64,000 nt of DNA from Apostichopus japonicus. Lineage: Eukaryota > Echinodermata > Holothuroidea > Aspidochirotida > Stichopodidae. Position 1 is the stretch's first letter. Each line of letters opens with the position of its first letter. The position numbers and the translations under genes are program-made. Of the stretch, positions 12,214 through 56,539 are shown in pieces. The notes under the pieces were generated by a model. That model was given only the letters and a program-made list of their open reading frames with translations, searched no databases and was not told the origin of the DNA. The stretch spans positions 9,757,501 to 9,821,500 of the forward strand of contig NC_092570.1 in assembly GCF_037975245.1 (NCBI RefSeq). Reading direction: 5' to 3'.

Positions 12214-12871
12214 GTATAAACAAGACAAACAAATTGGTATGTTAGTATTGGTGAAAATTTGGCGCACTGAGTTAAAATTGCTCGCAACAGCTTGAAATCC
12301 CCAAAAGAAGAACAACATTCATGTGCTCCTATACCGTGGCTGTTTCTTTTTTCATTTGTTCGAACCCTTTTGCACCTTTATTTAACGCTTTAGGTCACAT
12401 AATAGTTGAAGCAATGGATATCAATTGAAGAAGGTCTACGGCAAGATGTCATATGACACTTAAATTGAAATATTACTTTAACTCAACCAGCACACAAAAT
12501 GGCTTACCGATAGCATATGTATCTATCCACTTTTTCACTGCTGTTTGTGACATATTGGTCGTGGTATCCCGCGGTATCAGGATAAGCCACAATGTCAGTA
12601 CTGAACATGCGCAGAGAAAATATTTCAATGACAAATACTGTCACAATGTTCTAACCTTTGCTGGTCGATTCTTGTGCAGACAGTCTCGCTTTCATACATC
12701 GTTCTTGCACTCAACGATAAGGACACTAGTTTATAATACTGCCAGTTATAAAGACCAACAGTTGTTTCTTATTTTGTTTCACAGCGGAGAACACAGGCAG
12801 ACAAACTCTTTTACTGCACATTTTCACAGCAAGTCAAGAAAACAAATTAAGTTTCTAACCCAACATCTACC
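12214..12871. other. upstream region of LOX-a
   Basis: No other gene was recognised between the hAT element and LOX-a. A 161-codon open stretch at 12453-12938 overlaps the LOX-a start in another frame and has no domain, so it is judged spurious. A TATA-like box is annotated separately. Confidence 0.5.
12747..12753 (+). promoter_or_regulatory. candidate TATA box of LOX-a
   Basis: TATAAAG lies 125 bases before the start codon and could place transcription start near 12775-12780, giving a 5' leader of roughly 95 bases. LOX-b has a similar box at a similar distance. Pyrimidine-CAG sequences at 12679 and 12830 could instead be splice acceptors of a leader intron. This is from sequence only. Confidence 0.35.
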
Positions 12872-16301: not shown

Positions 16302-18386
16302 CAGGGGCGTATCCAGGATTTTCTAACCCGGGGGGCGCGAATTACTATCTAAGCGGAGCGCCACCATCGGTTGGCGCGCAGCGTACAAGAAAATTTCGGG
16401 TTTTGTTACCCCCCAGATTACCGGAAATGGCACTTCTCGGGCTTGAAATGACCAACCAAATGTACACGTTTGCCTGATAACCAAGAATTTCCTAATAGTT
16501 TTTTTCATCCATAACATTTTTGAAGATTGTCACCAGTCACACATCCTGTTCGACCTCATTGCATCTCCTGTGGATCATTGCTTTTTGTAGGTGATTCTAC
16601 GTCGCGGCCCACAATACCCGTAAGCACAATTTTTCAAGGTTTTGAGCCCATTATTTATTCAGAGTTTGAAAATTCACACTCTCGTGAATAAAATCTCTTC
16701 CAAAAATACCCATAATGTTGCACAAATTTCATCTATGGACACCAATATAGAAAAACCTCCTTCAACCCCTAACAGACCGGTCAAAATTGCACGAGTAGAG
16801 GGAAGTATGATGAAGAATGGTGGTCAGGGAATTTTCGAAAATTCAGACACAGTTTATTTATTGGTGTACAAATATTAAAACCTCTTATAACGGCTATACT
16901 ATCAAACTTCGTTGAATGGATTGAAAAACTACCATATATTTCCGAAACCGAACACTACATACATATACCACCCGAACCGAATTGTACAGTTGCTTATAAT
17001 AGCGTTTTCGACTTGAATATATTGCGCATTTATATGCATCTGTGTTATAACATGATAACACGTGTTATGCTACAGGCCTTTTTATTGCGGCCTGTGTTAA
17101 AAAAATATATAAAAATATAAAAATATAAAAAAAAATATATAAAAATATTTTATATTATATAAAAATATAAAAAGATATAAAAAGATATAAAAAGATATAA
17201 AAAGATATAAAAATATAAAAAAAATAAAAAATATAATACCACTACGATTTACTGTATTGTATCTTTAACATATCTAGCTCTCGCATGCTCCCAAAACATA
17301 ACACGTGTTAGTGTGTTATAACACCCTGGCATATAAATGCATAATATGCTACACGTTAAGAACAAATGTAAGCTCACACCTTTTCGGCTTGGGTGCATAT
17401 ACAATTTGGAGGTTGTTCATCCTGGAAAGCCATTTTCATGCTCACTGATATGATGTGATATCTGCTGTATGCTTTACAAATTCGAGTAATTGAAAACAAA
17501 AGACTGAAATAAATAACTTTTATCTGTTTATTGTGCGATGCCCCACATTATTTTCATTTCGAAAGATGCACAGTTTCAAGTTCATTACATACTGAAGGCA
17601 TCGGTTCTCTATCTGCCTTCAGTTTAGGGTAGATCTTGGGATTTTCATACCTAGATATTGCTAGATATCCATACAGTTCAGTGTCCTTAGCATTTTTCGG
17701 GGCCTGATCTTGGAAATTGCAAAATCGGGAGTGGTCACACTCCATGTAGGTCAGTGGACGTCGACCTCTAGACGTCACTAATACACAACCCGATCACTTG
17801 TTATCGATGAAGTGGTGTGTTGCCGGATTTTGTCAAGGTCTTGGTACAACGGGCAAAAGTCATTCATCTGGAAGCGATCAGAAAGGCTGGGCGTAGGGTT
17901 CTGGGGTTGTGGGGCGCGCGTTTTTATGCAGATGGGAACAATCTCAAGGAGTGATGGGTGCGTCCGCCCCCCTCCATTACATGATATTCACAGGAGATGT
18001 GCTCAATTCTCCAATCGCATCGGAATTTATTTTTAGATTCCTTGTACGAGTTACGGTACTAGATTTGGGGGTAACAATTGGCATTCAGGTCGGAGTATAT
18101 AGCATTTTATCTTTGGATGACAGTGTTGCATCGAAGGACACAGGTCTAGTGCAGTTCGCATATAGATCCTGGTCTGATACCGAAAATGTTCGAGACCAGC
18201 CACAGTTGGTTTCATAACACAATTGTACAATAGTTTAAGGCGTCCATACACACACGCGTAATAGACCATATATGGTATAATTGTATGCATTAGTGAGAGA
18301 GGAAAAATGGAAACGTCAAAATGGAGTTGTCGGTGTAAGGGTAGGCTGAGGCGTACGCCCCTTCCGAAATCCTCGATCCGTCACTG
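16302..18386. mobile_element. repeat segment A, probable hAT-derived element
   Basis: It begins with CAGGGGCGTATCCAGG at 16302 and may end at CGATCCGTCACTG (18386); these ends are partly inverted copies. Only a 6-bp shared flank (GCTACC) was seen, so the boundaries are uncertain. A plus-strand GCGGAGCG module lies at about 16346-16400. The stretch 16640-18000 is repeated in direct orientation at about 20270-21640 (segment B). The 74-codon minus-strand frame at 17554-17778 lies in this repeat and is not supported as a gene. Confidence 0.6.
17019..17347. mobile_element. MITE with about 50-bp inverted ends and AT-rich core
   Basis: Inverted arms at about 17019-17071 and 17298-17347 share GCATTTATATGC, GTGTTATAACA and TAACACGTGTTATG. 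The core (about 17100-17235) is an array of AAATATAAAA-type units. Segment B lacks this block at the matching place, so it was inserted after, or lost from, one copy of the duplicated segment. Confidence 0.75.
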
Positions 18387-20696: not shown

Positions 20697-21197
20697 CAGT
20701 GGCGTAACGATGAGCCTGGGGGTGGCTCCTGGCCCAGAGGGGCCCCCATTAGGAGGCCTCGCAAGGGCGTCCGCAGAAATGTAGTACAAGGGGGGTCAGT
20801 AGGTCATATAGATTAACACACTACTTGATACTATCTAAGCGGAGCGCCACCATCAGTTGGCGCGGAGCGTACGACGATTTTTTTGCCAAAAAATACTCCT
20901 AGATCGTCGAAAAAGACACTTCCCGTTCAGGTTGCATCTACACATCGGTTATTTTGAGATCTCATGTCTTAGGATTTTGACTTTCAGTAATGCATTATGG
21001 GTCAGTATGCAATGAACATAACTAGAGAACTGTTGGCTGGGGGAAATCATTGAAATGTCAAATGCTTAACTTTTTTTTTAATTTTCCAGGGGTGAGCAAG
21101 TGCCCCCCCCCCCTACTGTTTGGAGTATAATGGAGACTACTGCACAAATACAGTTATCAAACCTAAGCATAGGGCCCATAGGAGCCCATAGGAGTTG
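20697..21197. mobile_element. insertion in segment B, hAT-like
   Basis: Comparison with segment A defines an extra 501-bp block that starts CAGTGGCGTAACGATG. Flanks TGCTCCAC and CGCCCCAC agree at 6 of 8 positions. It contains a plus-strand GCGGAGCG module (about 20832-20880). The inverted ends are weak. Confidence 0.55.
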
Positions 21198-21758: not shown

Positions 21759-22435
21759 CCCGGGGGCGCGCCCCCAACACCCCCCCTGGATACGCGCCTG
21801 GCTACCATACCACTTCTAAATAATACCATTTATTTCTGTCAACGTTCTATGGGTATGACCACCATGGGCGGCGATCCGGACTTCCGAGTGGGGGGATATG
21901 ACCTTGTTGACTATCAGAGCCGTATATAGAGAGAGTTTGGCCAACTGGCGATTTGTGACGTCACACGCAAACCATGGGCATCAAAATAGGTCCAGTTGTC
22001 GTTACCAGTTGCGCGAAACACGAAAAACACCACACACAATATATAGCAGCTTTGCACACTGTGCTCGTTGCGAACAAACGAAGCGACTCAGAATGTCAGA
22101 TTTTGACAGGCATACGAGGAACAAAATGGATATCAGGTAATGAATTAGAGTATGCGTTAGTTAATGACATTTACGTTTATCTTCACACCTGAAATGCATA
22201 GAAAACTAGCTGAAAACCTGTCATTACACTTGTTTTATTTTACGCCTCATACTACTAGTCCTACTTTAGTCATACAAACGAAAAGCACACATCACAGTCC
22301 TGGCTAGGCTAGATTACAGACGCACAACTTTAGCATCAGGCCTACATTAATAGATCCTTCAATTAAATAAAGTAGGCCTACACATAAAATGACAATTTAT
22401 GCTTCACTGATCTTTTCAGGTTTGCCAAAAAGTAG

Positions 22436-22741
22436 TTGTACCAGAGGTCATTGTATTAAACTCCAGAAGTTACATAGTAGGATTAATATTCGGCATAACT
22501 TTTTCTCTAAAGTCTAATTACAACTTATACAATGGTTGTGAATGGATGGTATGGTTTGCCTGAGAAGGTTGAATTGCAAGTAGTGTGAATGGGTTTAAGA
22601 ATACTTTGGATGAGTACATTAAGCATTGTAATTGGGTATGACATTTGATGTCCTCGGTTTTATTCCTCTCATATAGCCTTAGGGTCCTTAATGGGGACTT
22701 GAATGTCTCTCCTGGTCTTTTTTTCTACTAAACTAAACTAT
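22436..22741 (+). mobile_element. LINE 3'-end fragment (LINE C)
   Basis: Reading in two frames gives TRGHCIKLQKLHSRINIRHN, then VVNGWYGLPEKV, then VNGFKNTLDEYIKHCNW. This is the C-terminal tail pattern of CR1/L2/Rex-type LINE ORF2. A short (ACTAA)n run at 22725-22741 fits the simple-repeat tail of such elements. Strongly 5'-truncated and decayed. Confidence 0.75.
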
Positions 22742-23401
22742 ATACTTGAGTGTAGGAGTTAGCAATAGTTGGGAGTCTGTGGGCAAACCTAAGACTGATA
22801 TTGTGGTGTTAATTTCTCAGGAATGTAGTACTACTGTAGGCTATAGTACAGTAGGTGCAACAGATTGAATGGGTCTGTCGAGAAAAAAAAAACCCTGCAA
22901 CAACTGAATACTGGTGTATGTTGTAGCTTATGTATTTTCCATTAACATATATACTATACGATCATGTCCTTAATAAAGTTTCATGGATCACACTGACATA
23001 GTGTGCCTACTTGTCAGTGTTGTCAACTGAGCACAGGGCTGATGACATCATTCAGTTTGTTATTATGCAGACAGCAAATGGCCATACTGATAATTATTAA
23101 TTGTTACTTATTCTTCATACTGCCCTTACTGGCCTTACCTGAACAGTGATGTATAAAAATGCAAGAAGTCGTTAAGCTTTTCATTTAAGAATAGTTTCAG
23201 CCTGTCCTATTTCAAACATATGATTGGCAGGTTTCCACGTTACATAGCTTATCAAAATGGAGCTGTTCTGTAAAGCAAGAAAATCACACATATGCATGCA
23301 TACAAACACACTCATATATAACAATTTCTGAATATCTTTTCAGCTGCCCAAAGGTACTGGAATGCAAGCTCTGTTGGGTGAATTAAAAAACCCTCATTGT
23401 A

Positions 23402-23944
23402 CTCTTTTATCATGGTCAGCGTAGCTGGAACCAGCAATGATGGTGATGTGGATTTGACAGTACCTAGACAAGAATTCAATAGCTGCTTTGTGTTGAAGTG
23501 GGTTCAACTTGCTCAAGGCCATGACAGGATGACGACTAGACATTAGGATGAATTATCTGTTGCAGAGCTCTATAAACCAGGCAGTTGTTAAAACATCCAT
23601 TGGGTGACCCTCACAGTCTACCAGGCACTGCATCGCAGAAGCAAAATGAAGTGTGTGTGATACCTTCATCTTATGAGAGTGGAATGGTATCAGTGTGGCC
23701 TCTGTCAATTTGGCTTCAAGTCTTTGTTTTCTTGAAAGCTGAGAAGATCTTTCAGTGGTTTCACACTGACCTCTGTACTTGACAATTCATGTGTATTTGC
23801 CAGCTCAGGAGGAAGCCAGATTTTAATTACATTAACCAATGCTGACTTTTTTTTGGACATGTGGTACATCTGCAAGGAGGTGAAGGAAGCAGTTGGAGTT
23901 GCATGGATGTGGAATCTTGTTGATAGTCTGGCAGTCTTATCCAC
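23402..23944 (-). pseudogene. decayed coding-like stretch, unknown
   Basis: On the minus strand an open frame (23944-23705) reads SFTSLQMYHMSKKKSALVNV and IKIWLPPELANTHELSSTEV. In other frames down to 23402 there is HPVMALSKLNPLQHKAAIEF and ITIIAGSSYADHDKR. The composition looks protein-derived but I do not recognise the family. It lies inside the 4.2 kb hAT element, so it may be remains of that element's transposase or of captured host sequence. Confidence 0.3.
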
Positions 23945-24233
23945 AGATTATCCCAAAGCTTCTCCACATTGCCACATTCAGAACTTATTACATTGATAAA
24001 CTTGAAAATTGCAGGAATCTAACAAAGCACCCATCAAGGGAATTTGTTTGTATAATTATTGAAAGCTGTGACCTTCTGATGTGACAGACTAATGTGAAAT
24101 AAAGGGCAGTAGATTACCTTGTAAATGAACCTTGTTATTGTTTGATTGTATCTAATGTTTGCAAAATTTTAAGTTGCATGCTACCAATTGAAACATAATT
24201 CTTTCTCTATTAATGGGATATAAATACTTCTCC

Positions 24234-24596
24234 TTAAAGGGTGTGGAGACTCCCGCACAAAGAAACGTCTCATGCCGGTTATCTGACCTAGTTTCGAATG
24301 CGGTGTAACAGAAGTGTTAGACACCACCATTGATCCCAGAAAATACACATACAGCTTGCTACCATCTGTAAATAGACATTAGTGTACAGTCAATACAAAC
24401 ATCACAGTCAATACCCACAACACAGTGCACATAGCAGCATGGACATCTCAGGTCTAGATAAAAGATAACAAGGTATCAGGTTTCATTACTGTCTGCATTT
24501 TGTAGCGACACAAAAAAAACTTCACTTGCAAGCAACGGAAAGTAAACTTTTTCAGAGCGCGGCATGCGGTTTAGGGCGAGTCTTCAATACCTTTAA
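24234..24596. mobile_element. TTAA-target MITE
   Basis: The element is 24238-24592 (355 bp). It is flanked by TTAA on both sides (24234-24237 and 24593-24596). Imperfect inverted ends are AGGGTGTGGAGACTCCCGC and GCGAGTCTTCAATACCT. The TTAA target suits piggyBac or Kolobok families; which one is not decided. Confidence 0.75.
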
Positions 24597-25169
24597 ATAT
24601 ACTGCATCGGTTGTTGTCACTTGATCATTTGCTTGTGTGTGAGCTAAACAGCTTAAATAATATGTAAAAAAACAATACAAACTTTCAAATTGCCAGATAT
24701 TTACTTGCTCAAAATCATTATCCAATCATGATTTGTTGCTATCCTTGAGTCCATTATTCAGATGATGAGGCAGATTCCCTTCAACTCTCCATGATGAAGG
24801 TAAAACCTTATATCTTAACCAACTGCCATTGAGTGTCCATTTGAAAGTTTCAAACACACAAGTGCATTGATTAAAACAAAGACTTTATTGCTGTGGTTGC
24901 AGGAACTGGATTTCAGTCTAGTAGTCACTCACCAGGTTTGTCATCACAGTCTGCTAACTGTGGCTTTTTATGTTAGGAGTTTTTCTTCAGAGCACATGTC
25001 ACCTTTGATTTGTAAAAAAAGTCCTGAAATTCAGGGAGTTAAAATTTACTGTCTAAAGATAATTTAAAAAGATTTTTTTTAACTTCAATCATCAATGTGG
25101 GTGTCAATTAAGGGAATAAGGAGGTACTGATGCAACTTTGATAAATGATAGTTGACTGCATTCAAATTA

Positions 25170-25860
25170 AACCAAGGCCTAGGCTATACTTTTGAAGAAG
25201 AAAAAATTAGGCTGAATTCATGTTAGCCTAAAAAGGCTAGGCCAATGCTGACAATTAACACAAACCAAGGTCATTTAACCATTTGGGCACTTGTTTATGG
25301 CATACTAAAAAGGGTCTATATAATTAGGCCTGTATGTATACACAACCCACAAGTTGCCAATGAGTATAGACCTAGCCTAACTAGTTTAGGCCTAGGCTAC
25401 TTTGTTTTCCTTAGACCTAGTTTAATTGGGCCTTATACTGTGCCATATTATGTAATGTGCTATAACAGTTGTAGTAATAGACGGAATGGTCCCGGTCTAA
25501 CTAAGCCCAGGCTTAACTTATGCTTCGGGCTTAACTAAGGATTAGGGCTTTACGTGATGCCTAGAGGCTAGCCCACCCTTTTACATTAAACTAAAAGTGA
25601 TACTTTTTTAGGCTAGGCATAGCCTAGGCATACAATAACTAGGAATTAGGATAACTATATGTGCGACTGAAACTGCCATGCCTATGATTAGGAGAGCTGG
25701 CATAATGAAATCGAATTTGTGGATCGTAAAACGAGAGAGAATAGCCATGCATGTAATTACAGAAACCAGTCTGAACGTAAAATTCTCGCATTGCTTGTAC
25801 ATTACTCGTATTACACTAGGGCCTATGGCTAGTATGGGCCTAGGCTACACAGACTTTTTT
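25170..25860. repeat. stretch rich in GGCCTAGGC-type motifs
   Basis: Many scattered copies of AGGCCTAGGCTA-like sequence on both strands (for example near 25175, 25390 and 25845). It is a low-complexity palindromic motif field with no gene recognised. It lies inside the 4.2 kb hAT element. Confidence 0.5.
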
Positions 25861-26681
25861 TCATTAGATCTCCATCTTGTTCTTTCTACTTCCAAAAAAT
25901 TCCTCTTCTTTTATGGTCAGTCGGATAATCAAACAACAATATCCATGTTCTGACCGATTGCAGCATCCCCAGCACCATTTCTTTCATAATTTCGTACTTT
26001 TTTCGTGTACACAAACGATAGTCTATACACTGTGAGTATGCGTGTCGTCTGCTATAAAGTTTTCAAGTGGACCTATTTTACCACCCTGTGTGGGCGTTTT
26101 CCCTCTCGACCAATCCAAATCGGTTACATGGTTGGCCAAACTCTCTCTATATACGGCTCTGTTGACTATCAAAGCATAGCGCCACCATGAGTTGGCGCGA
26201 AGCGTACAAGAAAATTTTGGGATTTACAAACCCTCTAGATGGCCGGAAACGGCACTTCCCGAGGTTTCCAAGCGGCATATACCCAATTTTAAAATAGGGA
26301 TATCATGTCCAAAATATCTCATAATCAGGATCCAAAATACTTTTTTTTTTAAAATTTCGGGTGTTATTTTGGGAAAATTGCCCCTGTCAATCTTGTTTCA
26401 GGCGCTACGTTAGAATGTTCGAGAGCTCTTTTATATTATTCGATGAAGAAAATGGCCTCATGCAGGCTATTATAGGCCTATACACATGCAATACACAATT
26501 ACACATAGTTACATATCTAGGTACCGATTGCTAGGGCATCCAGGTGAAACGTGTATTAAGCATTACCCTGGTAACATGAGATTCTCAGCTGTTCGAGGGA
26601 ACATGTACGTGTGTAGGCCTACTATAGGGCCTATATGAATACTATGAGGGTGCATATATGTACTATATCAATACCGTGGGC

Positions 26682-27156
26682 GCAAGGTGGCATACTCCTA
26701 TTAGAGTCTATATCAATCCGCTCGATTGTTCTCCTTCAGGAAAAGTGCCAAAAAGCAGCGGGAGAACATCTTTTGTGACCTGTTATCAATCATAATCTAG
26801 TTTTTTGTGGCTTGCATGTTGAAGACCATGAATGGAAGTACATGTGGTGAGAAAATTGGGTCAATTGAGGCAATTTTAGACCCCTTTATGCCTCCCAGGA
26901 GCAGCGTAGGAAATTTGTTTACCACTGAGTGAAGAGGTTTGTTTACAAGTGACGAAAACTTCCGGCTCGGATAGCAAAAAATTTTCACGGTCATGGTACG
27001 GAAAATTGATGGTGCCATGAAAGGCCAACTTGTCAGCTATCCGGTGATGGGTAGCGTTTAGCTAGTGAAAACTTCTATCTAGACTTAGAGACCACATTAC
27101 TTTTGTGATTTAGTGTGTAAGTCAATGGGGCTTTTAATGGGCGTATGCTACCGCAA
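26682..27156 (-). mobile_element. 467-bp MITE with 4-bp target duplication, copy 1
   Basis: The element is 26686-27152. Inverted ends are GGTGGCATACTCCTATTA and GGTAGCATACGCCCATTA, each read inward. GCAA lies immediately outside both ends. A 73-codon frame (27018-26797, minus strand) starts MAPSIFRTMTVKIF and recurs in copy 2 (41770-42236, opposite orientation). Copies are near identical and of exactly equal length. Superfamily not identified; a 4-bp duplication excludes hAT. Confidence 0.85.
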
Positions 27157-27443
27157 TAATACATTTTGTTGTTATAGGGCCAATGAAGCCTACAGTCAAC
27201 TATTCTTCCTTTATAAAGACGGTTTATTTGAAAAGATCGCACTGCGTTTATGGTAGGCGAGAAATGAAGCTAAAAAAGAGCCGTACATTCACGATGATGC
27301 ATAAATGTAGGCATGAAAATATTCTTATCCCTGGCATTTGGTGGGGGGATATGGTGTATTACATCCCCTCCATCCATTTTCATGGGGGGATATATCCCCC
27401 TCCCCCCCCCCCCCCCCCCAGGATCGCCGCCCATGATGACCAC

Positions 27444-28403: not shown

Positions 28404-28553
28404 ATTGTTTTCAGTGGCGGCGGAACCGGGGGGCTGGGGGGGCTCAGCCCCCCCCCCCAATGAAAAAGTTAAGGGGGCAAATACATGATAAGCCCCCCCA
28501 ATATTTACCAAGGCTCCGAAACGTGCATCTGCCCATTTTTCAATGCATACTTG

Positions 28554-29609
28554 CAGGCTTGGAGTAATCGTAATCAGTAATCGTAATCGATTACAATCGA
28601 TTACATTTTTTGAAGTAATCGTAATCGTAATCGATTACTTTTGTGAAAATTACAAAGTAATCGTAATCGTAATCGATTACAAGGGCAAAGTAATCGTAAT
28701 CGTATTACATTTATGATTACAGTGAAATTTGAATGAGAAGGGCAAAATTAGTAGAAATGATTAAAACTAATTCTTACTATTGGCTTTTAGTGTGACCAAA
28801 GAAGTGTTACTGCTTCTATAATTCTCTAGCACAATAAACTTATACTAAGAAGTACTGGGGATTTGATCGCCATATTCAAGGATTTTTTATCACCTGAATT
28901 ATTCTGTTCAATGCTGCCTCTCAGCGTTCACAATCCTTTTGCATACACAACTGGTTGACATTAGTTGACATGGTGTGCTGATTATAGAAAATTATTTCAT
29001 TAGTATATTAAACACTTAACAAACAATAACAGTCAGGCTGACAAAATACACCCTTTAAATTCATTTAAGTAAGTAAATTTGATAAATAATTCCATTTGCC
29101 ATGTTCAGTGGGCCACAAGGCTCAGGTGTAGCAGCTATTGAAAGCACATTGCTATTTATGTCAGTCTATTGTTCTCATTTGAAAACAGGAAAATCTTCAT
29201 TTGTTTTACTTTAGTATTTGTCTGTTTACTCTTTGTCTGTTTAAATTGTATTTTTTACTGGACTTATGGGTTACACATCTTAAACGTGTTAAGGCATAAA
29301 TGTGTAATGCCTGGTAGGAATTGTAGATATACTTCCACAATTTTGTCCGTATACTGTAAATGCCCTTCCTTTGCCCTATTTCATTGCCCTTTTTCCCGGC
29401 AGAGAGTTATATTAAACAGATATGCAGAGGACTGTGCAAGTAACCACAATGTAATCGTGATTGTAATCACTATTACATTACAATGTAATCGTAATCGTAA
29501 TCGATTACTTCAACTTTAGGCTGTAATCGTAATCGTAATCATAATCATACATTCTCAAGTAATCATAATCGTAATCGATTACATTCAGATGTAATCGCCC
29601 CAACCCTTG
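28554..29609. mobile_element. hAT-like insertion with TAATCG arrays
   Basis: This 1056-bp block is present only in the left composite copy. The uninterrupted site is seen in the right copy. Its ends, CAGGCTTGGAG and CCCCAACCCTTG, are imperfectly inverted. Inside each end lie arrays of TAATCG hexamers broken by ATCGATTAC palindromes (28566-28720 and 29446-29597), as in known hAT families. The 8-bp duplication expected for hAT is not visible. Confidence 0.7.
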
Positions 29610-29828
29610 TCGATCTGTCCGATGCACACGTATACTATATAGGTGTAATAATTTTAGTAATTGCTGGGGGACCCTCGGCCCGTCCCCTGGCTATAGACCA
29701 CATTGCCACCCCAACCGCGTCTTCACGCCTCGTGAAAAGTGGAAGCAGTGAGTGTGAGTACCGGTAAGCGTAACACAACTTCGTCTTAGGCCAATGACTT
29801 GCCTCATTTCAGCCAGTTCTCCAACATC

Positions 29829-30240
29829 CCCTTACTTAGCGGCGGAGCCTCCATATATACAGTCAGGGGCGGATGCCCCCACCACCCCCCCCCCCCCTTG
29901 ACGGACTCAAATGGTCAGCTTTTCACTACTTTTTATTTATTCGCGATTATTGACTATTTTATTGCGCTCTCATATACCTATTGACATTTGTCATATTCTG
30001 TTGGTGTAATTTTCCGACAAAATGGCGACGACACCTATTTATTCTCCGTTTATCTGCAAATTAGCAAGGCCCGGAAAGGGTCATTTCCTGCAATCTAGGG
30101 AGTATCTTTACTCAAAATTTTTCTGTACGCTCCGCGCCAACCTGTGGTGGCGCTCCGCTTAGATAGTGTCGAAAGCGCCCCTACAGACCATTCTTGCCCC
30201 CCCCCCGACCAATACCCCTAGCTCCGCCACTGCCCTTACT
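29829..30240 (-). mobile_element. inner MITE of left composite
   Basis: The element is 29837-30232 (396 bp). The target duplication CCCTTACT is exact at both sides. The ends are TAGCGGCGGAGC and GCTCCGCCACTG. The same element at the same position, with the same duplication, lies in the right composite copy (31790-32191). It contains one GCGGAGCG module (about 30122-30168, minus strand). Confidence 0.9.
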
Positions 30241-30931
30241 ACACTCAAAAACGTCTTTGCGAGTACACTACAAGTAATAGCTACTCTCTTAAAACACCAT
30301 CGAATATACAAATTACAATGTTTTTACAGACTTTTACGTGCAATCTGAGAAATTGCAGGCTTAAGACCCATATTTTAGGGCAAGATATTAGCAGTATAAA
30401 ACACTCGGGAAGTGCCGTTTCCGGCCATCTGGGGGTTTGAAAAAACCCAATTTTTTTTTTTACGCTCCGCGCCAACTGATGGTGGCGCTCCGCTTAGATA
30501 GTCTCCACACATTAGCGCCCCCCCCCCAATAATTTTCCCGTTCCGCCGCGCCTGATTGTTTTATATCATGAGAAATGGTGTTCCGGATGGAACACCAAAC
30601 CGTAGGATGTCCATACTGATAGTGTACTGTATGATACGTTTAAGCAAACAACACACGAACGAGACATCAAAATATAAGCTTGATCAAATTGAGTTTACTA
30701 CTCATTTGTTTGAATTTTTCAAAACATTTTAACTGCTAACTGAAGTAATTTTGCTTCATGCGAACCTAGATCAATTATCTTGTAACCGCTCACATGGCCG
30801 GCTCACATTGCCGTTAAAGAAATAAAGGCATCGTTCTCCAGAAATTACGTTCGGGTTATTGAAACTAGTGGCCTCGATAAGATTGTGCATGCGTTTTAAG
30901 AATTGACATTTACACGTTTTAAGACGCAATA

Positions 30932-30991
30932 CCTTAGCCTGACCCTTAGCCTGGCCCTTAGCCTGGCCCTTAGCCTGACCCTTAGCCTGAC
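30932..30991. repeat. 12-bp minisatellite, five units
   Basis: Five head-to-tail copies of CCTTAGCCTGRC. The minus-strand open frame through it reads as an RLRVRL-type repeat and is not thought to be a gene. Confidence 0.9.
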
Positions 30992-31462
30992 CATGACACG
31001 AAAAATCAAGCCACTTGATCCGCTCTCAATCCCTGTTCCATTAAAGTAGGACATCGATAATATATCACGACTAGTGTTAAGCCTATAATTGTTTGCGATA
31101 TCGGTATCGGCCGATATTTGCAATATCGGCGGCATAACGACATCGGCTAAACTTAGCCTTGTTGCCGGTAACGGCACACCGATATTGAACGTTTTTTTCA
31201 CAACGAAGTCCCTTCTTGTTATTTGTGATGATTTATTAATCTGTCCTAAACAATACATCCTCAGTTTCGTTTTCGATTAATAGCCAGTGGTCGATATGCC
31301 CATCAGCTGTTCAACGAATCAAGACGAAAGTTCCGAAAAATATTTACTGCTAACGATCAGTAAATTACCGTGGCTGTAAAGGGACATTTCGATATTTCGA
31401 TGTTTTGACTTTTTGGTTTCGAGATTTCGACTTTCACGTTTCTGAGATTCCGATTTTTTGCA

Positions 31463-32566
31463 CGCACGGCCAGGCGCGGCGGAACGGAAAAATTATTGGG
31501 GGGGCTAATGTGTGGAGACTATCTAAGCGGAGCGCCACCATTGGTTGGCGCGGAGCGTACAAGAAAATTTTGGGTTATTTCAAACCCCCAGATGGCCGGA
31601 AACGGCACTTCCCGTGTGTTTTATGCTGCGAATACCTAGCCCTAAAATATGGGTCTCAAGTCTGCAATTTCTCAGATTGCACGTAAAAGTCTGTAAAAAC
31701 ATTGTAATTTATATATTCGATGGTGTTTTAAGAGAGTAGCTATTATACTCGTAGTGTACTCGCAAAGACGTTTTTGAGTGTAGTAAGGGCAGTGGCGGAG
31801 CTAGGGGTATTGGTCGGGGGGGCAAGAATGGTCTGTAGGGGCGCTTTCGACACTATCTAAGCGGAGCGCCACCACAGGTTGGCGCGGAGCGTACAGAAAA
31901 ATTTTGAGTAAAGATACTCCCTAAATTGCAGGAAATGACCCTTTCCGGGCCTTGCTAATTTGCAGATAAACGGAGAATAAATAGGTGTCGTCGCCATTTT
32001 GTCGGAAAATTACACCAACAGAATATGACAAATGTCAATAGGTATATGAGAGCGCAATAAAATAGTCAATAATAGCGAATAAGTAAAAAATATATTGAAA
32101 AGCTGAAAAGGGCGCCAGCAGTCCATTTGAGTCTGTCGGGGGGGGGGGGGGCATCCGCCCCCTGACTGTATATATGGAGGCTCCGCCACTAAGTAAGGGG
32201 ATGTTGGAGAACTGGCTGAAATGAGGCAAGTCATTGGCCTAAGACGAAGTTGTGTTACGCTTACTGGTACTCACACTCACTGCTTCCACTTTTCACGGGG
32301 TGTGAAGACGCGGTTGGGGTGACAATGTGGTCTATAGCCAGGGGACGGGCCGAGGGTCCCCCAGCAATTACTAAAATTATTACACCTATATAGTATACGT
32401 GTGCATCGGACAGATCGACAAGTATGCATTGAAAAATGGGCAGATGCACGTTTCGGAGCCTTGGTAAATATTGGGGGGGCTTATCATGCATTTGCCCCCT
32501 CAACTTTTTCATTGGGGGGGCTGAGCCCCCCCAAGCCCCCCCGGTTCCGCCGCCACTGCGCACGGC
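31463..32566 (+). mobile_element. composite hAT MITE, right copy
   Basis: The element is 31471-32558 (1088 bp). Ends are CAGGCGCGGCGGAACGG and CCGGTTCCGCCGCCACTG. The 8-bp target duplication CGCACGGC is exact at 31463-31470 and 32559-32566. It contains the inner MITE 31790-32191. Two GCGGAGCG modules lie about 50 bases inside its left end and about 65 bases inside the inner element. Short open frames such as the one at 31545-31739 recur in the other copy only because the DNA is duplicated. Confidence 0.94.
31782..32199 (+). mobile_element. inner MITE of right composite
   Basis: The element is 31790-32191 (402 bp), with ends CAGTGGCGGAGC and GCTCCGCCACTA. The 8-bp target duplication AGTAAGGG is exact at 31782-31789 and 32192-32199. 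This is the reverse complement of CCCTTACT seen in the left composite. Confidence 0.92.
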
Positions 32567-33218
32567 GCGGGTAACAACTCGAGAGTCCGAGTTATCTCGT
32601 CTAACCGTAACACTGCATGAGGCCTACTTGATGTAAATATGATAAGAATATCTGACATACGCAACGAAAAGGGTACAATTATCAAACAATTGTTAATTGT
32701 CTCCTTCTTGGTCATGGCATTTCGCTCTCAAAGGCAATTGATACGACTCTTGAGGGAACAAGGCATGTATCAAAGGAAATTTTGTTAGACAGGTAGGTCC
32801 GACTATTGGCCGAGTGACTCGTGTTGTTGTGTAATCGATTAGTGTAGGTATTATATACATAAACTATGCACTAAACCTTTCACTTGATTCATTTATTTCA
32901 TCTAATTTTGAAGAAAAAATAATAAATTGTAAGATAATCTCGACTTACAAAATGCACGTCCCATAATGATGGATTAAGTCAAACAAAACATTCAAATCGA
33001 AATGCCCTTTTACAGCCACGGTAGTAAATATATAGACCTTTCAGGCCACATAACATTACTACATAGCAGTTTCACCAGTCTGGATGCTGTACAAGAAAAC
33101 ACAACAAAATTAAAACCAAACATACCCGCTATCACCTGGGTGGTACCCTTGCAAATATTCTTGGCAACAATACAAGAAACGTTTTTTTCACAATCGAAGT
33201 TGTAAACATGGCAAACTC

Positions 33219-37402: not shown

Positions 37403-37765
37403 TTTATAGGCAGGGTTATAGCTGGGAGATTGTGAGTGCTGGTTAAATAAATTTGCGAAGCGTAGCGAGCGTTGCGAGCGAAGCTATCGCATCTCATGGC
37501 CGGGGGTCTAGGGGCCCGCTTAAGGGTGATTTTTGCTACTTTTCAGATTTACAATTGGTAAATAACAGAAAAAGGTGACGTTATTATCATGTTTTACGGC
37601 AAGGGAAAGATAAATTTGTTACTTTTGTTGTATTTCACAAGCATTTTACTATATTTTTGTGCCTGCCAGTGGACTGTTTATTCACTTCCAATGCCGGCCG
37701 GCAGGCGTGAGTGGCGGTTACCACCGGCCGCCGCCGTCCGGCGTGGCTATAACCCTGTTCATAGG
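37403..37765. mobile_element. 347-bp hAT-type MITE
   Basis: The element is 37411-37757. Ends are CAGGGTTATAGCTGG and CCACGCCGG / GGCTATAACCCTG, inverted over about 12 bases. Target duplication is TTTATAGG at 37403-37410 against TTCATAGG at 37758-37765 (7 of 8). It contains a GC-rich stretch of GCGAGCG-like units (about 37455-37486). Confidence 0.8.
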
Positions 37766-38199
37766 TCATGAAATGTAAAAACATGAAATAAGTTCATTTA
37801 CGTCACTGAAACATGGTGCCGAAAGCTGAACAGATTAATTTGTGTTGTAGATTGACCTGTGACACTTAGTAAAGCCAATAGTTACGAGGTTTCCTTCCCA
37901 ATGCCCTAACTTTACTTTTAATGCTTGGATCACATGTTGACCTTACTTATGATACATACGCTACATTCCATTAATTCGCGTTTACGTTATCCACGATTAA
38001 GTGAGCCGTTCTATTGAAATCGGAATTCGTTTGGTTTTCGAAATGCCATGCAACTTCGACGTTCAAACGTGTGCAGCCTTTCTCTGGCAACTTCGAGCGT
38101 TACGCAGGTACCAGTGAGGGCTCTTTCTGAATCAGAATGTGTACAACTTGTTTGACTCAAACACTCTAAAGAAATACACAATTTGTGTAAACGATTACA
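37766..38199. other. intergenic, nothing recognised
   Basis: No supported feature. Confidence 0.4.
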
Positions 38200-38439
38200 C
38201 AACTATAATGGCAAACGTTGCGTACAAATAACACAACCGTGTGTAAAAACAAATGACACGTGTGACGCGAGTTATGTAAAGCTTACCACTCATATGTGCA
38301 GAAGTGACACATGTGTCAAACTAGATTACAAAACAGTTTTGTAAAGCTTACCACTTTAATGTGTAGAAACAGGTAAAAACTTGTGTAAAAACATGCTGCA
38401 CAACTGCAGTTATGTAAAGCTGACTATTCATGTGTGTAG
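38200..38439. repeat. satellite array, left part
   Basis: Degenerate tandem units of about 70 bases with GTAAAGCTTACCAC, ATGTGTAGAAACAGG and ACATGCTACACAAC-like blocks. Two unit types alternate. The array is cut by the hAT element at 38440 and continues at 40651. Confidence 0.75.
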
Positions 38440-40657
38440 CAGCGACGTAGCCAGGAATTTGAAAGGGGGGAGCACTTTTTGCGATTGATATGGATTTTCA
38501 AAGTTGTAGGCACGACTATCTGAGCGGAGCGCCACCATCGGTTGGTGCGGAGCGTACAAGAAAATTTTTGGTTTTACAAACCCGCCAGATGGCCGGAAAC
38601 GGCCCTTCCCTAGTGTTCATTCTGGTTCCCTGGCCTCTTGCTAACTTGAGACACCTCATTCAATATCACTTTTAAACCCCAAAAACAAACGAGTTAAAAT
38701 AGTACGTAATTCAATAATACATAATGTATTAAAATTAGCAAGTTACACAAGGGCGGCGGAAGCACTTTTAATCTGGGGGGGGGGGGGGGGCACCGACGTC
38801 AAAGGGCACTTGCAGAAATTCGATTGGACTGATGCAGCCTGATATTTAGTACCCTTTATAAATCTTATTGTATTATCTTATTTGCGTATACACATCACTC
38901 CATCAACCCCCCCCCCCCCCCCGTCTTAGTAGTCTTACTTTTCAACTTCTGATACTTGTAGATACAAAGATAGGCCAGAAATGTCTTTGATACAACCATA
39001 GCCAGTATTTGTCTTTGATACAACTGTAGCTAGTAAATGTTTATCGAAAAGGCTGTTTTGGAACTTGGAACGCCGATCGTGACAACAACATGCAACAAAG
39101 TGCTGCAGCTCTATACATATAAAGTCTGTTACTCAACGATAGGCTTATTTGACTGTGGAATGTTCTCAACTGAAATTTTATCTGCGTAAACGGGTTCTTA
39201 AGTAGATGTTAAAAAAACTGACAAGATCGTATCCTAGTCTTTTTCGGCGGGTAGAGTATTGAATGAAACGGCACGCGATATGAATGACAGCCTAGATGAC
39301 AGAAGAATAGGTCACCTAATTTAGCCATAATCTTGCTACGTTCATTTCAATAGTTTTTCCTGTGTAGACTCTTAAACTCGTCCAGCAAGCTTATGGATTT
39401 GAATTATGGGTGTTTTAATAAAAAAGATAACTTGGCCCAAAAAAGTGTAGGCCCGGGCCTACAGTGCTACATACTGGCTACGCCCCTGATAGTTCTAAAT
39501 TAGGATTAGATCTCTTACTGAAATATCGCTGACCTAATAAGGTGATCAAGAGTACAAGTTTTATGTAGAAAAAGGGCACATTTTTAACCTGAGGAAAAGT
39601 GGGGGGCACTTGCCCCCTGTGCCCCCAGTTCCGCCGCCCTTGAAGGTACATGTACAGAGTAGTCTTACTTTTCAACGTCTGATACTTGTAGATACAAAGA
39701 TAGTCCAGAAATGCCTTTGATACAACTGTAGCTAGTAAATGTTAAAATTAGCCTAATAAGAGAAGGCGAGAGCTATCCGACGATTGCCATCTGATGCAAA
39801 TTTCTCAAGTGTTTTCTCAACTGAAATATTATCTGCGTAAACGGGTTCTTAACTACATGTTAAAAAAACTGACAAGATCGGATCCTATAGTCTTTTTCGG
39901 GGGGGGGGGGGGGTAGAGTGTTGAATGAAACTATCGTGCTACATACTGGCTACGCCCTGATCATATGATATCAGTATCAGCAGATTTTGTTTCCTGTTTA
40001 AATTCTTTTACATGTTCTTTTACATAATATATCAGAAGGACAAACATAGTGCTCTTTTACAAGTTTTCCAGTAGGATGATTCTTGTTTATTGTCCAATGT
40101 CTGGACTTTAATACATTTGACGAACTTAACTGATGGACAATATAAACTTTCATATTTTGTAATACAGCCAAATATGCAGTGGCCTAAAAACAAATATCGT
40201 TATCGCAGTGTATTAGCAGTGTAATAATTATTTATAGGAAGTGCGTATCACGTACGATTGCTAGCTTAGCTTCATAACATGCTGTTCGTGCAACAACTTA
40301 AGACGACTCATTGAACGAACGTTGTCGACGTTGTTGTGCATACAGTTCGTGACATTCCATAGAGTGCGGTTAGGTAGGCAATATGTATTTTATAACGCAG
40401 TGGCCAACTGTAGGCTTGTAATTGGCTATAAGCTAAATTTAGCTAATTGCATCTGCCAAACTAAGTAAGTAGTTGAATCAGTAGGCGTGAATGTTACTAC
40501 GATTACAATCGAGTTAACGGAGCTGACGAGTATTCAAGATCAAAAGAGCACTGACAAAATACCATGCTAAAAAAACGACAGTTTAAAAAAAAATCGACAC
40601 TGAAAGGGGGGAGAGGTCGCTCCCCTGCTCCCCCCCTGGCTACGTCCCTGTGTGTAG
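38432..40657. mobile_element. 2.2 kb hAT-type element inserted in the satellite
   Basis: The element is about 38440-40650. Ends are CAGCGACGTAGCCAGG and CCTGGCTACGTCCCTG. The flanks GTGTGTAG (38432-38439) and (G)TGTGTAG after the right end match, with one base of ambiguity at the right edge. Satellite units continue on each side. It holds an F1-type MITE (38748-39642). A GCGGAGCG module lies about 75 bases inside its left end (about 38515-38565). Parts of 39655-40650 resemble 11312-11890 in inverse order. Confidence 0.8.
38740..39650. mobile_element. hAT-type MITE, family F1 copy 2
   Basis: The element is 38748-39642 (895 bp), with the ends CAAGGGCGGCGGAA and TTCCGCCGCCCTTG identical to copy 1 at 3491-4147. 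Target duplication is AAGTTACA at 38740-38747 against AAGGTACA at 39643-39650 (7 of 8). Terminal parts match copy 1 in inverted order. The middle differs and is partly a duplication of sequence found again at 39658-39960. Confidence 0.85.
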
Positions 40658-40890
40658 AAATATCAAAACATTGTGTGAAAACATGCTACACAACAGTTGT
40701 GTAAAGCTTACCACACCAATGTGTAGAAACAGGTCCAAACTTGTATGCAAACATGCTACACAACTGCAGTCGTGTAAAGCTTACTCCATTCATGTGTGTA
40801 GAAATACCAAAACATTGTGTGAAAACATGCTACACAACAGTTTTGTAAAGCTTACCACACAAATGCGTAGAAACAGGTAAAAAAAAAAAC
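40651..40890. repeat. satellite array, right part
   Basis: Continuation of the array at 38200-38439. A-type units (ATGTGTAGAAACAGGTCC) alternate with B-type units (CATGTGTGTAGAAATACC), giving a dimer period of roughly 140 bases. The 76-codon open frame across it is a product of the repeat, not a gene. Confidence 0.8.
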
Positions 40891-41765
40891 ATTGCGTGAA
40901 ATGCACGGTACACATAATAAAATATTTGCCACACTACATCTGATAGAATATGGAATTTCAACGCACGACATTGAACCAACTATTTTGTACAAAACATTAT
41001 TTCATTGTCCACGTTTCCTTACAGCATCATCCAGAAACATATCGATGCCTTCGCCGTCCGTGGCAGTAAGACACCAGTCGTGCTGTATTTGGCTCGGATG
41101 TTCCACACTGCAACCGTAACAAAAATCACCAAATTTTAGCTTTTAAAAGCCCAGTACAAACTAGAACAACTGTATTTGTAAAAGGTGAAAGTAAGTTAGT
41201 TGTCGATATTCAATGGAGGTGTCTTTGAAGTTATTTCGGTCACGAAGAAGCCGGTTCGGCGATTGGTCCCTTTCCCACCGAGAGACCAGATTCTGGTCTC
41301 TACCAAACAGTGTTTTTTTTTCGAAAATCATAACTTGAGATAGGAACACACTAGAAACACACTTCCCATAGCTTTATTTTGTACAGCAGACAGTCTGCAT
41401 CAATAAACCACTTTTTTAGGGGGGGTCATGTGGATTTTTTTTTTTTTTGTCTTCAGAGATTTGTTTACATTCAAAAAGTGGACATTTTTTACCTTTTGAC
41501 CTTTTTTCACACAAAAAAACGCGAGACCAGTCAATTTTTTTTATCAACTGGACCCTATCAATTCCAACTAGCTAACACATTATAGGACTCAAATCTGGAG
41601 TCTCAAAGACATCTGTATTTAGATTTCTCCGTGATGGGCAAAATATCTCAAAAATATGTAATTTTTCGGTCAAAATTTTGCTAAAATATGGTCTCTTTTG
41701 TTTTTTTCCCCTCCCGTATGCCTCAACTTACCCACAAGATTTTTACATATTTAGAACCCGGCGTC
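40891..41765. other. intergenic, nothing recognised
   Basis: No gene recognised. T-rich runs at about 41308-41520. Confidence 0.4.
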
Positions 41766-42240
41766 ACAAGGTAGCATACGCCCATTAAAAGCCCCATTGA
41801 CTTACACACTAAATCACAAAAGTAATGTGGTCTCTAAGTCTAGATAGAAGTTTTCACTAGCTAAACGCTACCCATCACCGGATAGCTGACAAGTTGGCCT
41901 TTCATGGCACCATCAATTTTCCGTACCATGACCGTGAAGATTTTTTGCTATCCGAGCCGGAAGTTTTCGTCACTTGTAAACAAACCTCTTCACTCAGAGG
42001 TAAACAAATTTCCTACGCTGCTCCCGGGAGGCCTAAAGGGGTCTAAAATTGCCTCAATTGACCCAATTTTCTCACCACATGTACTTCCATTCATGGTCTT
42101 CAACATGCAAGCCACAAAAAACTAGATTATGATTGATAACAGGTCACAAAAGATGTTCTCCCGCTGCTTTTCGGCACTTTTCCTGAAGGAGAACAATCGA
42201 GCGGATTGATATAGACTCTAATAGGAGTATGCCACCACAA
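41766..42240 (+). mobile_element. 467-bp MITE with 4-bp target duplication, copy 2
   Basis: The element is 41770-42236, with the same inverted ends as copy 1 (26686-27152) and ACAA immediately outside both ends. Orientation is opposite to copy 1 and length is identical. The 73-codon frame (41904-42125) differs from copy 1 by three amino-acid changes and one silent change. Confidence 0.87.
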
Positions 42241-42393
42241 AAAAAATCTTAGACCAAAACGAACGAGTTAGCAATAGCGCCATCGTTATTGAGTTATTCT
42301 AGCAATTCAACACAAGCATTTTCACGGTATTGAATTTCGGTCAATCACAGTTGAGATCGCGCGGGTACGCTAAATAATCACTTGGCAACAAAC

Positions 42394-42546
42394 ATGGCCA
42401 GATTACGTGAAAAAGTAAGTCTGGACGATGCTCTTGATCTCCTTTGTACGGAAAATTTGACTATCAAGCCGTTGGGAATGGAGAATGAAGACATCGCTGT
42501 TCGTATGCTATATAAACGAGTAAAACGACATTACTTATCACATTAA
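42394..42546 (+). CDS. small ORF of unknown function, 50 codons
   Basis: ATG to TAA frame reading MARLREKVSLDDALDLLCTE and ending VKRHYLSH. Composition is protein-like (acidic amphipathic start, basic tail) and differs from the transposon shadows around it. It lies between the MITE and a LINE fragment. It could be a first exon or decayed gene piece. I do not recognise a family and support is weak. Confidence 0.25.
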   Translation: MARLREKVSLDDALDLLCTENLTIKPLGMENEDIAVRMLYKRVKRHYLSH

Positions 42547-43285
42547 ATCGCAACTTCGTTTATTTGCGGATGATGATTTGCTGTATAAGCCTATTCACTC
42601 ATTTGACGATCATCTCATTCTCCAGAAAGATCTGAAGGCTCTTGAATCCTGGGCTACGCTTTGTGACATGAAATGCAATCCCTCTAAATGCCTCATGATG
42701 TCTATAAAGCGTAGCGGGCAAAATCTGTGTTTTTCTACCCATATACAATCAAATATTGGAGTGCGTCACTGCGCAACCTTATCTGGGTATCCTGTTTAGT
42801 GACAATTTGAATTTCTCTACACATATTGATAAGATATGCTCTAGGACCAGCAGAACCCTTGGCTTCTTGAATAGGAATTTGCGCTCTTGCCAACTAGAAT
42901 TACGTGAATGGGGCTATATATCTATGTGTCGTTCTACTCTTGAATATGCAGCTCAGATTTGGGACCCTCGTAAGGTCTCAGACCAAGATAAAATAGAAAA
43001 AAATTCAAAGGAAGGCAGAGCGTTTTGTAACTCGTGACTTCCGTAGGCAATCCAGCGTCACTGAGATCTTAAAGACTTTGAAATGGGAACCCCTCATAGA
43101 AAGAAAGAAAAGGGTCAGACTCATGCTTTTAATCAAATTATTAATGGCCTAGTTGCAGTCCCAAACCAGAATAATCCCTTCTTGAAACCAGGGAGGCGTG
43201 GCCGCTATACACAAATTCCACATAATCATCGTGCTTTTTAGTATAGTTTCTATCCTAGGAATATAAAAGACTGGAATACGCAATC
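42545..43285 (+). mobile_element. LINE fragment (LINE D), reverse transcriptase 3' half
   Basis: Reads SQLRLFADDDLLYKPIHS (catalytic FADD box), LQKDLKALESWATLCDMKCN, then LGILFSDNLNFSTHIDK, LEYAAQIWDP, LKWEPLIERKKRVRLMLLIK and FYPRNIKDWN. These are successive blocks of a CR1/Jockey-like LINE ORF2 from the reverse transcriptase core to the C-terminus. It is 5'-truncated, has a few frame breaks, and is cut at its 3' end by a truncated hAT fragment. Confidence 0.85.
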
Positions 43286-43680
43286 CTTGACAACGTTCGT
43301 TCTCATCCTTTCTATGATTAGTCCTAAGTTGTTGCACGAACAGCATGTTATGAAGCTAAGCTAGCAATCGTCGTGATACGCACTTCCTATAAATAATTAT
43401 TACAATGCTAATACACTGCGATAACGATATTTGTTTTTAGGCCACTGCACATCTGGCTGTCTTACAAAATATGAAACCAAATCTGCTGATAATATGATAT
43501 CATTTGATAATGATGAAACTGGCAAAACATTGCACCAGATCGCATCTAAGGACCTTCAATTGTTCAAAAATATCTCAAACGGAGGGGGACACCCCTCCCC
43601 TTAGACCCTCACCCATATCAATCGCAAAAAGTGCCGCCCCCCCCCTTTCAAATTCCTGGCTACGTCGCTGCTGTTTAACA
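43286..43680. mobile_element. truncated hAT-type element end
   Basis: Matches the right part of 11312-11890 (for example TTGTTGCACGAACAGCATG and GGCCACTGCACATCTGGC) and ends in CCTGGCTACGTCGCTG at 43672. The left end is missing, so no target duplication can be tested. Confidence 0.7.
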
Positions 43681-44117
43681 GATAAAGTTTGCCTGCCAGT
43701 TACTCATCACACCCGTCTTTGCTATAAAATTGTCTAACTGTAACTTGAGCATTGCCACGAAATGTATGTAATTGCACGTGTCTATTACCTTCGAGATAAT
43801 ATGTTTACTCACATGTGACGGTTTGCAACCACTGTGCCCAAGGTAATATGGTGGCATGTTTGGCATCGAGGTTTTCCGCAACGGAAAGTACCTGCAGAGT
43901 TGGAAACTGGGGTAGGACTTGAAGTCTGGAGGAAGGGAGTAGAAATCTAAGGTTGGCGGCTTGCCGAAATGCTACTATAGAGCATGGAGGGTACCAAAGA
44001 CAATAGATGATGACTGAAGGAAGTGAACCAAGAGCCCTTTGTGTATAAGAATCGAACTAATTTATAGGTGCGTCATTGGGCTAAAGAACTAAGAAACGTG
44101 GTTTCGTTTTCTTGTAA
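43681..44117. other. intergenic, nothing recognised
   Basis: No supported feature. Confidence 0.4.
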
Positions 44118-44490
44118 AGGAATTTTGGGAATGTTATGATATTATCGGTTCTTCAGTTTTGCTTTCATTCCAATAAATATGGCAATCCACTAAAAAAATA
44201 TTATTGTAGGAATTTTAGGAAAGTGATAATATTATCGGTTCTTTCAGTTTTGCCTTCAGTTCATTAAATATGACAATTAACTAAGATATGTCATTGTTGT
44301 AGGAATTTGGGCAATGCGATAATATTATCGTTTCTTTCAGTTTTGCCTTCAGTTCATTAAATATGAAAATTAACTAAGATATGCCATTGTTGTAGGAATT
44401 TGGGGAATGTGATAATATTATCGGTTCTTCAGGTTTGCTTCATTTCATTAAATTTGACAACAAACTAAAAAATGTTATTTTCCTTGTTGT
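44118..44490. repeat. minisatellite of about 93 bp, four units
   Basis: Units start near 44118, 44209, 44302 and 44395. Each has GTAGGAATTT, then in the later three the perfect palindrome GATAATATTATC, then TTTGCCTTCAGTTCATTAAA-like sequence. Confidence 0.9.
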
Positions 44491-55400: not shown

Positions 55401-56531
55401 ACTGTGCTTTCTGCATCGTAACCAAAACGAAACAGAAACTATAACCAATAATATAAAGACTCTTTAAACTGAAAAATGCTTTGCATTTTTGTCTTTGTGC
55501 TACCTCGAAGGTGTATAAGGCTATTGCTAATCGAAATCCGGTTTATTCTGCTAGTCGATAAAATTCGTCAAAGACATGCATGCCGGTTTCGTTTCTACTT
55601 TCCAGAAACACAGCGTCACCATTTTCTATTTATAACTGTTTCTTTTGAGGAATGTAACATGTTGTGAAACGTGACCGAGATGTGTTTCTTTATAGTATGG
55701 ATGAGTCAAGGCCAAAAATTTACTTTGATACGTTATAGCTCCGATATATCAGACGATTTTCTATATCTTTACTGCATTAACTTTGTGGGAAATGGCCTTT
55801 TAAACATCTTAGGCTCATCAATTGAAGTGACTGGAGAGCTAATATAATATAAAATTGGTATATTATTATTATTCCAAAATTAAGTACATATGTAGTTGAT
55901 ATGTGATGGGCTTGTCACTTATGTACAGTAAGTGGTATAAAAGACAAAGCCATTGAATGAATTAATCAATATTGTCTCAAAAACATATTTACTTTCAGGA
56001 TCAAACGAAACTAGTTTGCAAAATTTCAGCAGGAGAGATAATGATGTTTGGAGACATTGGGAGCATTTGACTCATTGGTCGAATTGATCGCATTTTCTCA
56101 TGACATCATGTGTTTCCGTCGATAGACATCTTGCTGCTTTTACCATAGACTTTTACAACATTACTGGTTATAAAGAAATGTTTAAAGCTACTGCTGTTAT
56201 CAGCTACAATTTAATTAGTTGTCAATGTTTAATTAGATAGTGTGTTTAGTGCTTTCTCAAAACATCAAGATATACCTGTTTCTTATTGGACAAAAGCTCA
56301 GAGAACAAATAATTCCCTTTAAATTTCATCTCGTCACTTTGTTTTTGTTCTTTTTGTGAACCGTATACAAATTGTTCTTGCAAATTGGCTATTAACCTTT
56401 CAAGTTAATTGCGTTACCCGTTACTCGCTATGGTTCGTGAGTAAGTATAATTGATATCTGTCTTTTATTTCAGCTTTTCAAACCGTACAATTTACTGCCA
56501 CGATTTAGCATACACACGGACTGCCTACTTG
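55401..56531. other. LOX-b upstream region
   Basis: No gene or repeat recognised. A pyrimidine tract ending in TTTCAG at 56473 could be a splice acceptor for a leader intron, but it lies upstream of the TATA-like box. Confidence 0.4.
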
Positions 56532-56539
56532 TATAAAAA
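56532..56539 (+). promoter_or_regulatory. candidate TATA box of LOX-b
   Basis: TATAAAAA lies 136 bases before the start codon, close to the 125 bases in LOX-a. It would place transcription start near 56560 and give a leader of about 105 bases. Confidence 0.35.

What the first reader, a model, noticed from the sequence alone, without database searches (positions are those of the whole stretch)
28404..32566. A MITE-inside-a-MITE that moved as one unit
Two inverted composite copies, about 1087 bp (28412-30554 without its extra insertion) and 1088 bp (31471-32558), have different exact outer target duplications (ATTGTTTT and CGCACGGC). Both hold the same inner MITE at the same place with the same inner duplication (AGTAAGGG / CCCTTACT). 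Since the outer duplications differ, each copy arrived by its own transposition, after the inner element was already aboard. The inner cargo was thus carried by the ends of the outer element. This is direct sequence evidence for a stable composite non-autonomous hAT family.
Basis: partly seen in the sequence, partly recalled or inferred. Interest (0 to 1): 0.75.

Follow-up and report, generated by a model that had tools for sequence, protein, structure and literature searches.

The report
Nested hAT-like MITE that moved together
A short parasitic DNA element that had taken in a second, related one was most likely copied to a new place with its passenger on board, a clean small example of a known kind of event.

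Summary
Two inverted copies, A (28412-30554) and B (31471-32558), are bounded by exact but different 8-bp duplications (ATTGTTTT, CGCACGGC). Both carry the same ~400-bp inner element at the same site with the same 8-bp duplication (AGTAAGGG/CCCTTACT). Flanks share no same-orientation match, so segmental duplication is very unlikely. Inner and outer parts are equally diverged (9/383 and 24/682 substitutions, p = 0.36).

Three claims need trimming. Two copies prove at least one move as a unit, not two. Gene conversion between these close inverted neighbours is not excluded. A stable family is untested: no genome is held, and the window shows no empty outer and no solo inner copy. The hAT label rests on 8-bp duplications and the type of ends; no transposase domain was found in the 24 ORFs tested, and 0 of 3 target sites fit either hAT consensus.

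Added here: inner and outer elements share a ~100-bp subterminal module, found nine times in the window, and other elements nearby are nested or mosaic. Composite MITEs that spread are already described (MER6).

The parts
28404..28411 (.). outer target duplication of copy A, left (ATTGTTTT)
30555..30562 (.). outer target duplication of copy A, right (ATTGTTTT)
28412..30554 (-). composite copy A, 2143 bp (1087 bp without the extra insert); terminal repeats 15/20 matching
28550..29605 (+). extra 1056-bp insert in copy A with TAATCG-rich ends; a 4-bp CTTG direct repeat makes 28554-29609 an equally good placement (ends CAGGCTTGG / CCAACCCTTG)
   Evidence: absent from copy B at the same place
29829..29836 (.). 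inner target duplication in A (CCCTTACT)
29837..30232 (-). inner MITE in copy A, 396 bp
30233..30240 (.). inner target duplication in A (CCCTTACT)
31463..31470 (.). outer target duplication of copy B, left (CGCACGGC)
32559..32566 (.). outer target duplication of copy B, right (CGCACGGC)
31471..32558 (+). composite copy B, 1088 bp; terminal repeats 14/20 matching
31782..31789 (.). inner target duplication in B (AGTAAGGG)
31790..32191 (+). inner MITE in copy B, 402 bp, ends CAGTGGCGGAGC / GCTCCGCCACTA
32192..32199 (.). inner target duplication in B (AGTAAGGG)
31515..31619 (+). subterminal module in the outer element, copy B
   Evidence: nhmmer
31849..31952 (+). subterminal module in the inner element, copy B
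   Evidence: nhmmer
30401..30505 (-). subterminal module in the outer element, copy A
   Evidence: nhmmer
30067..30170 (-). subterminal module in the inner element, copy A
   Evidence: nhmmer

Best explanation
A ~0.68-kb non-autonomous, hAT-like element was invaded by a related ~0.4-kb MITE, which left an 8-bp duplication. A transposase supplied in trans then recognised the outer ends and moved the ~1.09-kb composite at least once, giving copies A and B with different 8-bp target duplications. Later a third, TAATCG-rich element entered copy A. Shown: the nested structure, the matching inner duplications, the different outer duplications, the lack of shared flanks and the similar divergence of inner and outer parts. 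Inferred: the hAT-type transposase, the order of events, and a short-range hop as the cause of the 916-bp spacing.
For: Exact outer and inner duplications; no shared same-orientation flanks; inner 9/383 and outer 24/682 substitutions, p = 0.36; ends-plus-duplication scan 10 against a null mean of 0.5; the extra insert is in A only, so most simply younger than the copying.
Against: Only two copies, so only one unit move is required. Substitutions are uneven: the outer left arm has 17/317, the rest 16/748 (Fisher p = 0.010), which could mean gene conversion over the inner part; without five substitutions in and beside an A-rich tract p = 0.14. No empty outer copy and no solo inner copy in the window. 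The inner right end departs from the expected CTG. The target sites fit neither hAT consensus tested.
Confidence: 0.8

Rival explanations
1. The outer element transposed empty; the inner MITE inserted into one copy and was copied into the other by gene conversion between the two close inverted repeats.
For: Copies are inverted and 916 bp apart; substitutions are fewer from the inner element rightward (16/748) than in the outer left arm (17/317), p = 0.010; the longest substitution-free run, 174 bp (31750-31924), spans the junction of outer left arm and inner element (chance 0.096).
Against: The contrast fades when five substitutions in and beside an A-rich tract are dropped (p = 0.14) or counted as one (p = 0.096); inner and all outer divergence do not differ (p = 0.36); it needs an extra event.
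Confidence: 0.12
2. The pair arose by local inverted segmental duplication, not by transposition.
For: Proximity and inverted orientation.
Against: Homology stops at the outer ends, each copy has its own perfect 8-bp duplication, and no same-orientation flank match was found.
Confidence: 0.02
3. The same MITE inserted independently at the same site in two empty outer copies.
For: None found.
Against: It would need the same base position, orientation and element version, including the shared ...CTA right end, twice.
Confidence: 0.01
4. The inner part is not an insertion but an ancestral block of one long element that happens to have TIR-like edges.
For: Inner and outer elements share the ~100-bp module, and no empty outer copy is available in the window.
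Against: An exact 8-bp duplication sits directly at both edges of a 12-bp imperfect inverted repeat, in both copies.
Confidence: 0.05

Closest known systems
MER6/MER6A composite MITE (PMC6887750; abstract, outline and found passages seen)
   Same: A non-autonomous DNA element took in another transposable element, and the composite then multiplied.
   Different: Tc1/mariner-derived, with a SINE passenger, in mammals; here hAT-like ends with a related MITE passenger and both sets of 8-bp duplications still exact.
Mar, a hAT MITE of Drosophila (PMC3517528; passages seen)
   Same: Short, non-coding, imperfect CAG... terminal repeats, 8-bp duplications.
   Different: Mar's target sites fit nnnTAnnn and a related transposase is described; here 0 of 3 sites fit and no transposase was found.
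Composite P-MITE AgaP2-P12MITE of Anopheles gambiae (PMC1562414; passages seen)
   Same: One MITE combining sequence from two related subfamilies.
   Different: That one has a 5' end from one subfamily and a 3' end from another, not one whole element nested inside another.

Membership tests
hAT superfamily | 8-bp target-site duplications | tested here: met
   Exact for both outer copies and for the inner element in both copies
hAT superfamily | short terminal inverted repeats of the CAG...CTG type | tested here: met
   Outer ends CAGGCGCGGCGGAAC and GTTCCGCCGCCACTG, imperfect; the inner right end is ...CTA. Repeat lengths of 5-27 bp are; the CAG...CTG type as a hAT mark is recalled
hAT superfamily | target consensus nTnnnnAn (Ac) or nnnTAnnn (Buster) | tested here: not met
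   0 of 3 sites of the composite fit either. Of 8 sites typed in, 2 fit Ac and 0 fit Buster; 2 of the scan's 10 candidates (37411-37757, 37955-44133) were left out, and for 38748-39642 one of its two differing flanks was used. nnnTAnnn was read; nTnnnnAn is recalled (the listing shows it in 3 papers not opened). Small sample
hAT superfamily | related autonomous element encoding a hAT transposase | tested here: inconclusive
   No transposase domain in the 24 distinct ORFs given to Pfam (5, 10, 10, one of them given twice); the window's other ORFs were not tested and the rest of the genome is not held
MITE | short, non-coding, with TIRs and target duplications | tested here: met
   396 and 402 bp inner, 1087 and 1088 bp composite; the longest frame listed that overlaps copy B (32261-32623, 120 aa) has no Pfam match at E<=0.1
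MITE | high copy number | not testable with these tools
   Own genome not held; within the window only the two composites

The most novel reading that the evidence does not exclude
In this genome many hAT-like MITE families share one exchangeable ~100-bp subterminal module that is better kept than the cores around it. Nesting and core exchange between families, followed by transposition as a unit, would then be the normal way in which new MITE families arise here.
Probability: 0.2. Interest if true: 0.5.

Novelty: new member of a known kind. Interest (0 to 1): 0.3.

Why it matters
It is a clean two-copy case, from 8-bp scars alone, that a nested MITE can be carried by the ends of its host element. 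If the shared module and the nesting prove general, this genome would be a good place to study how new MITE families form and which subterminal sequence the transposase needs. On its own it is an ordinary event in a repeat-rich genome.

Tried and rejected
Genome-wide count of filled and empty copies: not possible, no genome is held. Exact-pattern scans for the module in viral contigs and in bacterial and archaeal genome contigs: 0 matches each; these collections are not expected to hold an animal element. Rfam at gathering score over the window: 0 matches.

Of these 20, four had a weak match below the curated cut-off (GbpC 0.022, CATSPERG_beta-prop 0.064, CR_prot_dom_plant 0.056, Antifungal_prot 0.06), which I take as chance; 16 had none.

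Literature: looked for nested or composite MITEs. One search listed 20 of 63,770 and one search listed 20 of 61; held 4, 0, 1 and 8 papers. MER6 is the one close precedent that I opened. The library lacks most subscription papers, so more precedents probably exist. One search looked for terminal and module letters in papers: 8 listed, none with a transposon title, none opened.

The first flank comparison gave a 100-bp perfect match that is an artefact: the two flanks taken overlapped. It was redone without overlap.

Full report
What was claimed. Two inverted composite copies with different outer 8-bp duplications share an inner MITE at one site with one inner duplication, taken as proof that the composite moves as a unit.

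Check. The stated coordinates and duplications are exact. Copy A is 28412-30554 between ATTGTTTT repeats; copy B is 31471-32558 between CGCACGGC repeats. The inner element is 29837-30232 in A (396 bp) and 31790-32191 in B (402 bp), between CCCTTACT/AGTAAGGG repeats. A scan of the window for inverted ends plus 8-bp duplications gave 10 candidates against a mean of 0.5 in ten third-order Markov sequences. That scan did not list A's inner element because it required a CA start, and in A the element begins TA on the + strand; its duplications were verified directly.

The copies. A and B align over 1065 ungapped columns with 33 substitutions. The inner part has 9/383 and the outer parts 24/682 (Fisher p = 0.36), so they look equally old. 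Non-overlapping flanks of A and B show no same-orientation match at E<=0.1, so a larger duplicated segment is not the likely cause. Copy A alone holds a 1056-bp TAATCG-rich insert at 28550-29605 (or 28554-29609), flanked only by a 4-bp CTTG repeat; a partly lost 8-bp duplication would fit, but that is a guess.

What the logic allows. Different outer duplications mean different insertion events of the outer ends. With two filled copies, at least one insertion must have carried the inner element; the other copy may be the founder. The unevenness of substitutions (outer left arm 17/317, remainder 16/748, p = 0.010) leaves gene conversion open as a minor rival. Five of the 17 lie in or beside an A-rich tract at 31560-31577, and the contrast is p = 0.14 without them. 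The split at the inner element's edge was chosen after seeing the data.

Mechanism. The most likely course is a cut-and-paste move by a transposase acting in trans on the outer ends. The 8-bp duplications and CAG-type ends point to hAT. The target sites of the composite fit neither hAT consensus (0 of 3). Pfam found no transposase domain in the 24 distinct ORFs given (5, 10, 10, one given twice); two of them matched reverse transcriptase and two matched lipoxygenase with PLAT. The proper label is therefore hAT-like.

The shared module. Outer and inner elements both carry a ~100-bp module (with ACTATCTAAGCGGAGCGCC near its start), ACTATC beginning at base 48-66 of the element in the four cases. 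nhmmer finds nine occurrences in the window at E<=1, the same nine from which its profile was built: four in the two composites and five elsewhere (16341-16444, 20827-20929, 26162-26266 and 38512-38616 on +, 3724-3620 on -), with pairwise identity of 69-99%. Five of the nine lie in elements with ends supported by inverted repeats and a duplication: the four of the composites, and the 26162 copy, which lies 48 bases into the 21863-27435 element once that element's 4.2-kb insert is set aside. For the other four, ACTATC lies 40-76 bases after a TIR-like start picked by eye (CAGGGGCGTAGTCAGG, CAGGGGCGTATCCAGG, CAAGGGCGTCCGCAG, CAGCGACGTAGCCAGG), with no partner end proven. BLAST of the non-module parts of inner and outer elements against the window finds the two composites and otherwise only matches of 46 bp or less, many of them in terminal repeats or G/C runs; the outer element and the 21863-27435 element match over 159 bp at 79%, module included, plus two weak matches of 25 and 29 bp at E 0.38. 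So inner and outer elements look like relatives, and the module is better kept than the cores around it. Whether it binds transposase is inference.

Other nested or mosaic elements. The 5573-bp element 21863-27435 (14/14 ends, ATGACCAC) contains a 4247-bp element 21915-26161 (14/14 ends, TTGACTAT). Two elements with CAAGGGCGGCGGAA ends, 3491-4147 (exact duplication) and 38748-39642 (duplication with one mismatch), share 172 bp at 95% at one end and 89 bp at 93% at the other but have different cores; part of the first one's core (169 bp, 95%) lies at 38492-38658, outside and upstream of the second element. Joining the flanks of 3491-4147 with one duplication removed gives, in one of three frames, 85 open codons across the junction before a stop, which fits insertion into the coding part of the LINE-like element whose reverse transcriptase frames lie at 1928-2735.

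Known or new. MER6 is described as a composite MITE formed when a SINE entered a mariner-derived MITE, which then diversified (PMC6887750; abstract, outline and passages). The present case is a new member of that kind, with a related MITE as passenger. The listings showed no title on a nested hAT MITE pair like this one, but two listings were capped, the species is unknown and the library is partial.

Setting. The window holds two long frames with PLAT and lipoxygenase domains. The first (12851-14890), the only one compared with solved structures, is closest to 11R-lipoxygenase and then to allene oxide synthase-lipoxygenase (that these are coral enzymes is recalled). This suggests an invertebrate animal; the organism was not identified.

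Scores. Observation confirmed; unit transposition 0.8; interest 0.3.

Noticed in passing
21863-27435, with 21915-26161 inside: 5.6-kb element (14/14 matching ends, 8-bp duplication ATGACCAC) nested by a 4.2-kb element (14/14 matching ends CAGAGCCGTATATA, duplication TTGACTAT); no transposase domain in the ORFs tested.
   Followed up: partly
nine places in the window, e.g. 31515-31619 and 3620-3724: A ~100-bp subterminal module shared by elements with different terminal repeats, on average one per 7 kb; no Rfam match in the window.
   Followed up: partly
3491-4147 and 38748-39642: Two elements with the same 14-bp CAAGGGCGGCGGAA ends, similar subterminal stretches and different cores; the first seems to interrupt a LINE-like retrotransposon.
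   Followed up: partly
12851-14890 and 56509-58689: Two long open frames, each with PLAT and lipoxygenase domains in one uninterrupted frame.
   Followed up: partly
whole window: The palindrome TAGGCCTA occurs 9 times against 0.8 expected from base composition.
   Followed up: no
10855-12205: Possible 1351-bp TIR element (11/14 matching ends) with exact duplication AGTGCAAC.
   Followed up: no
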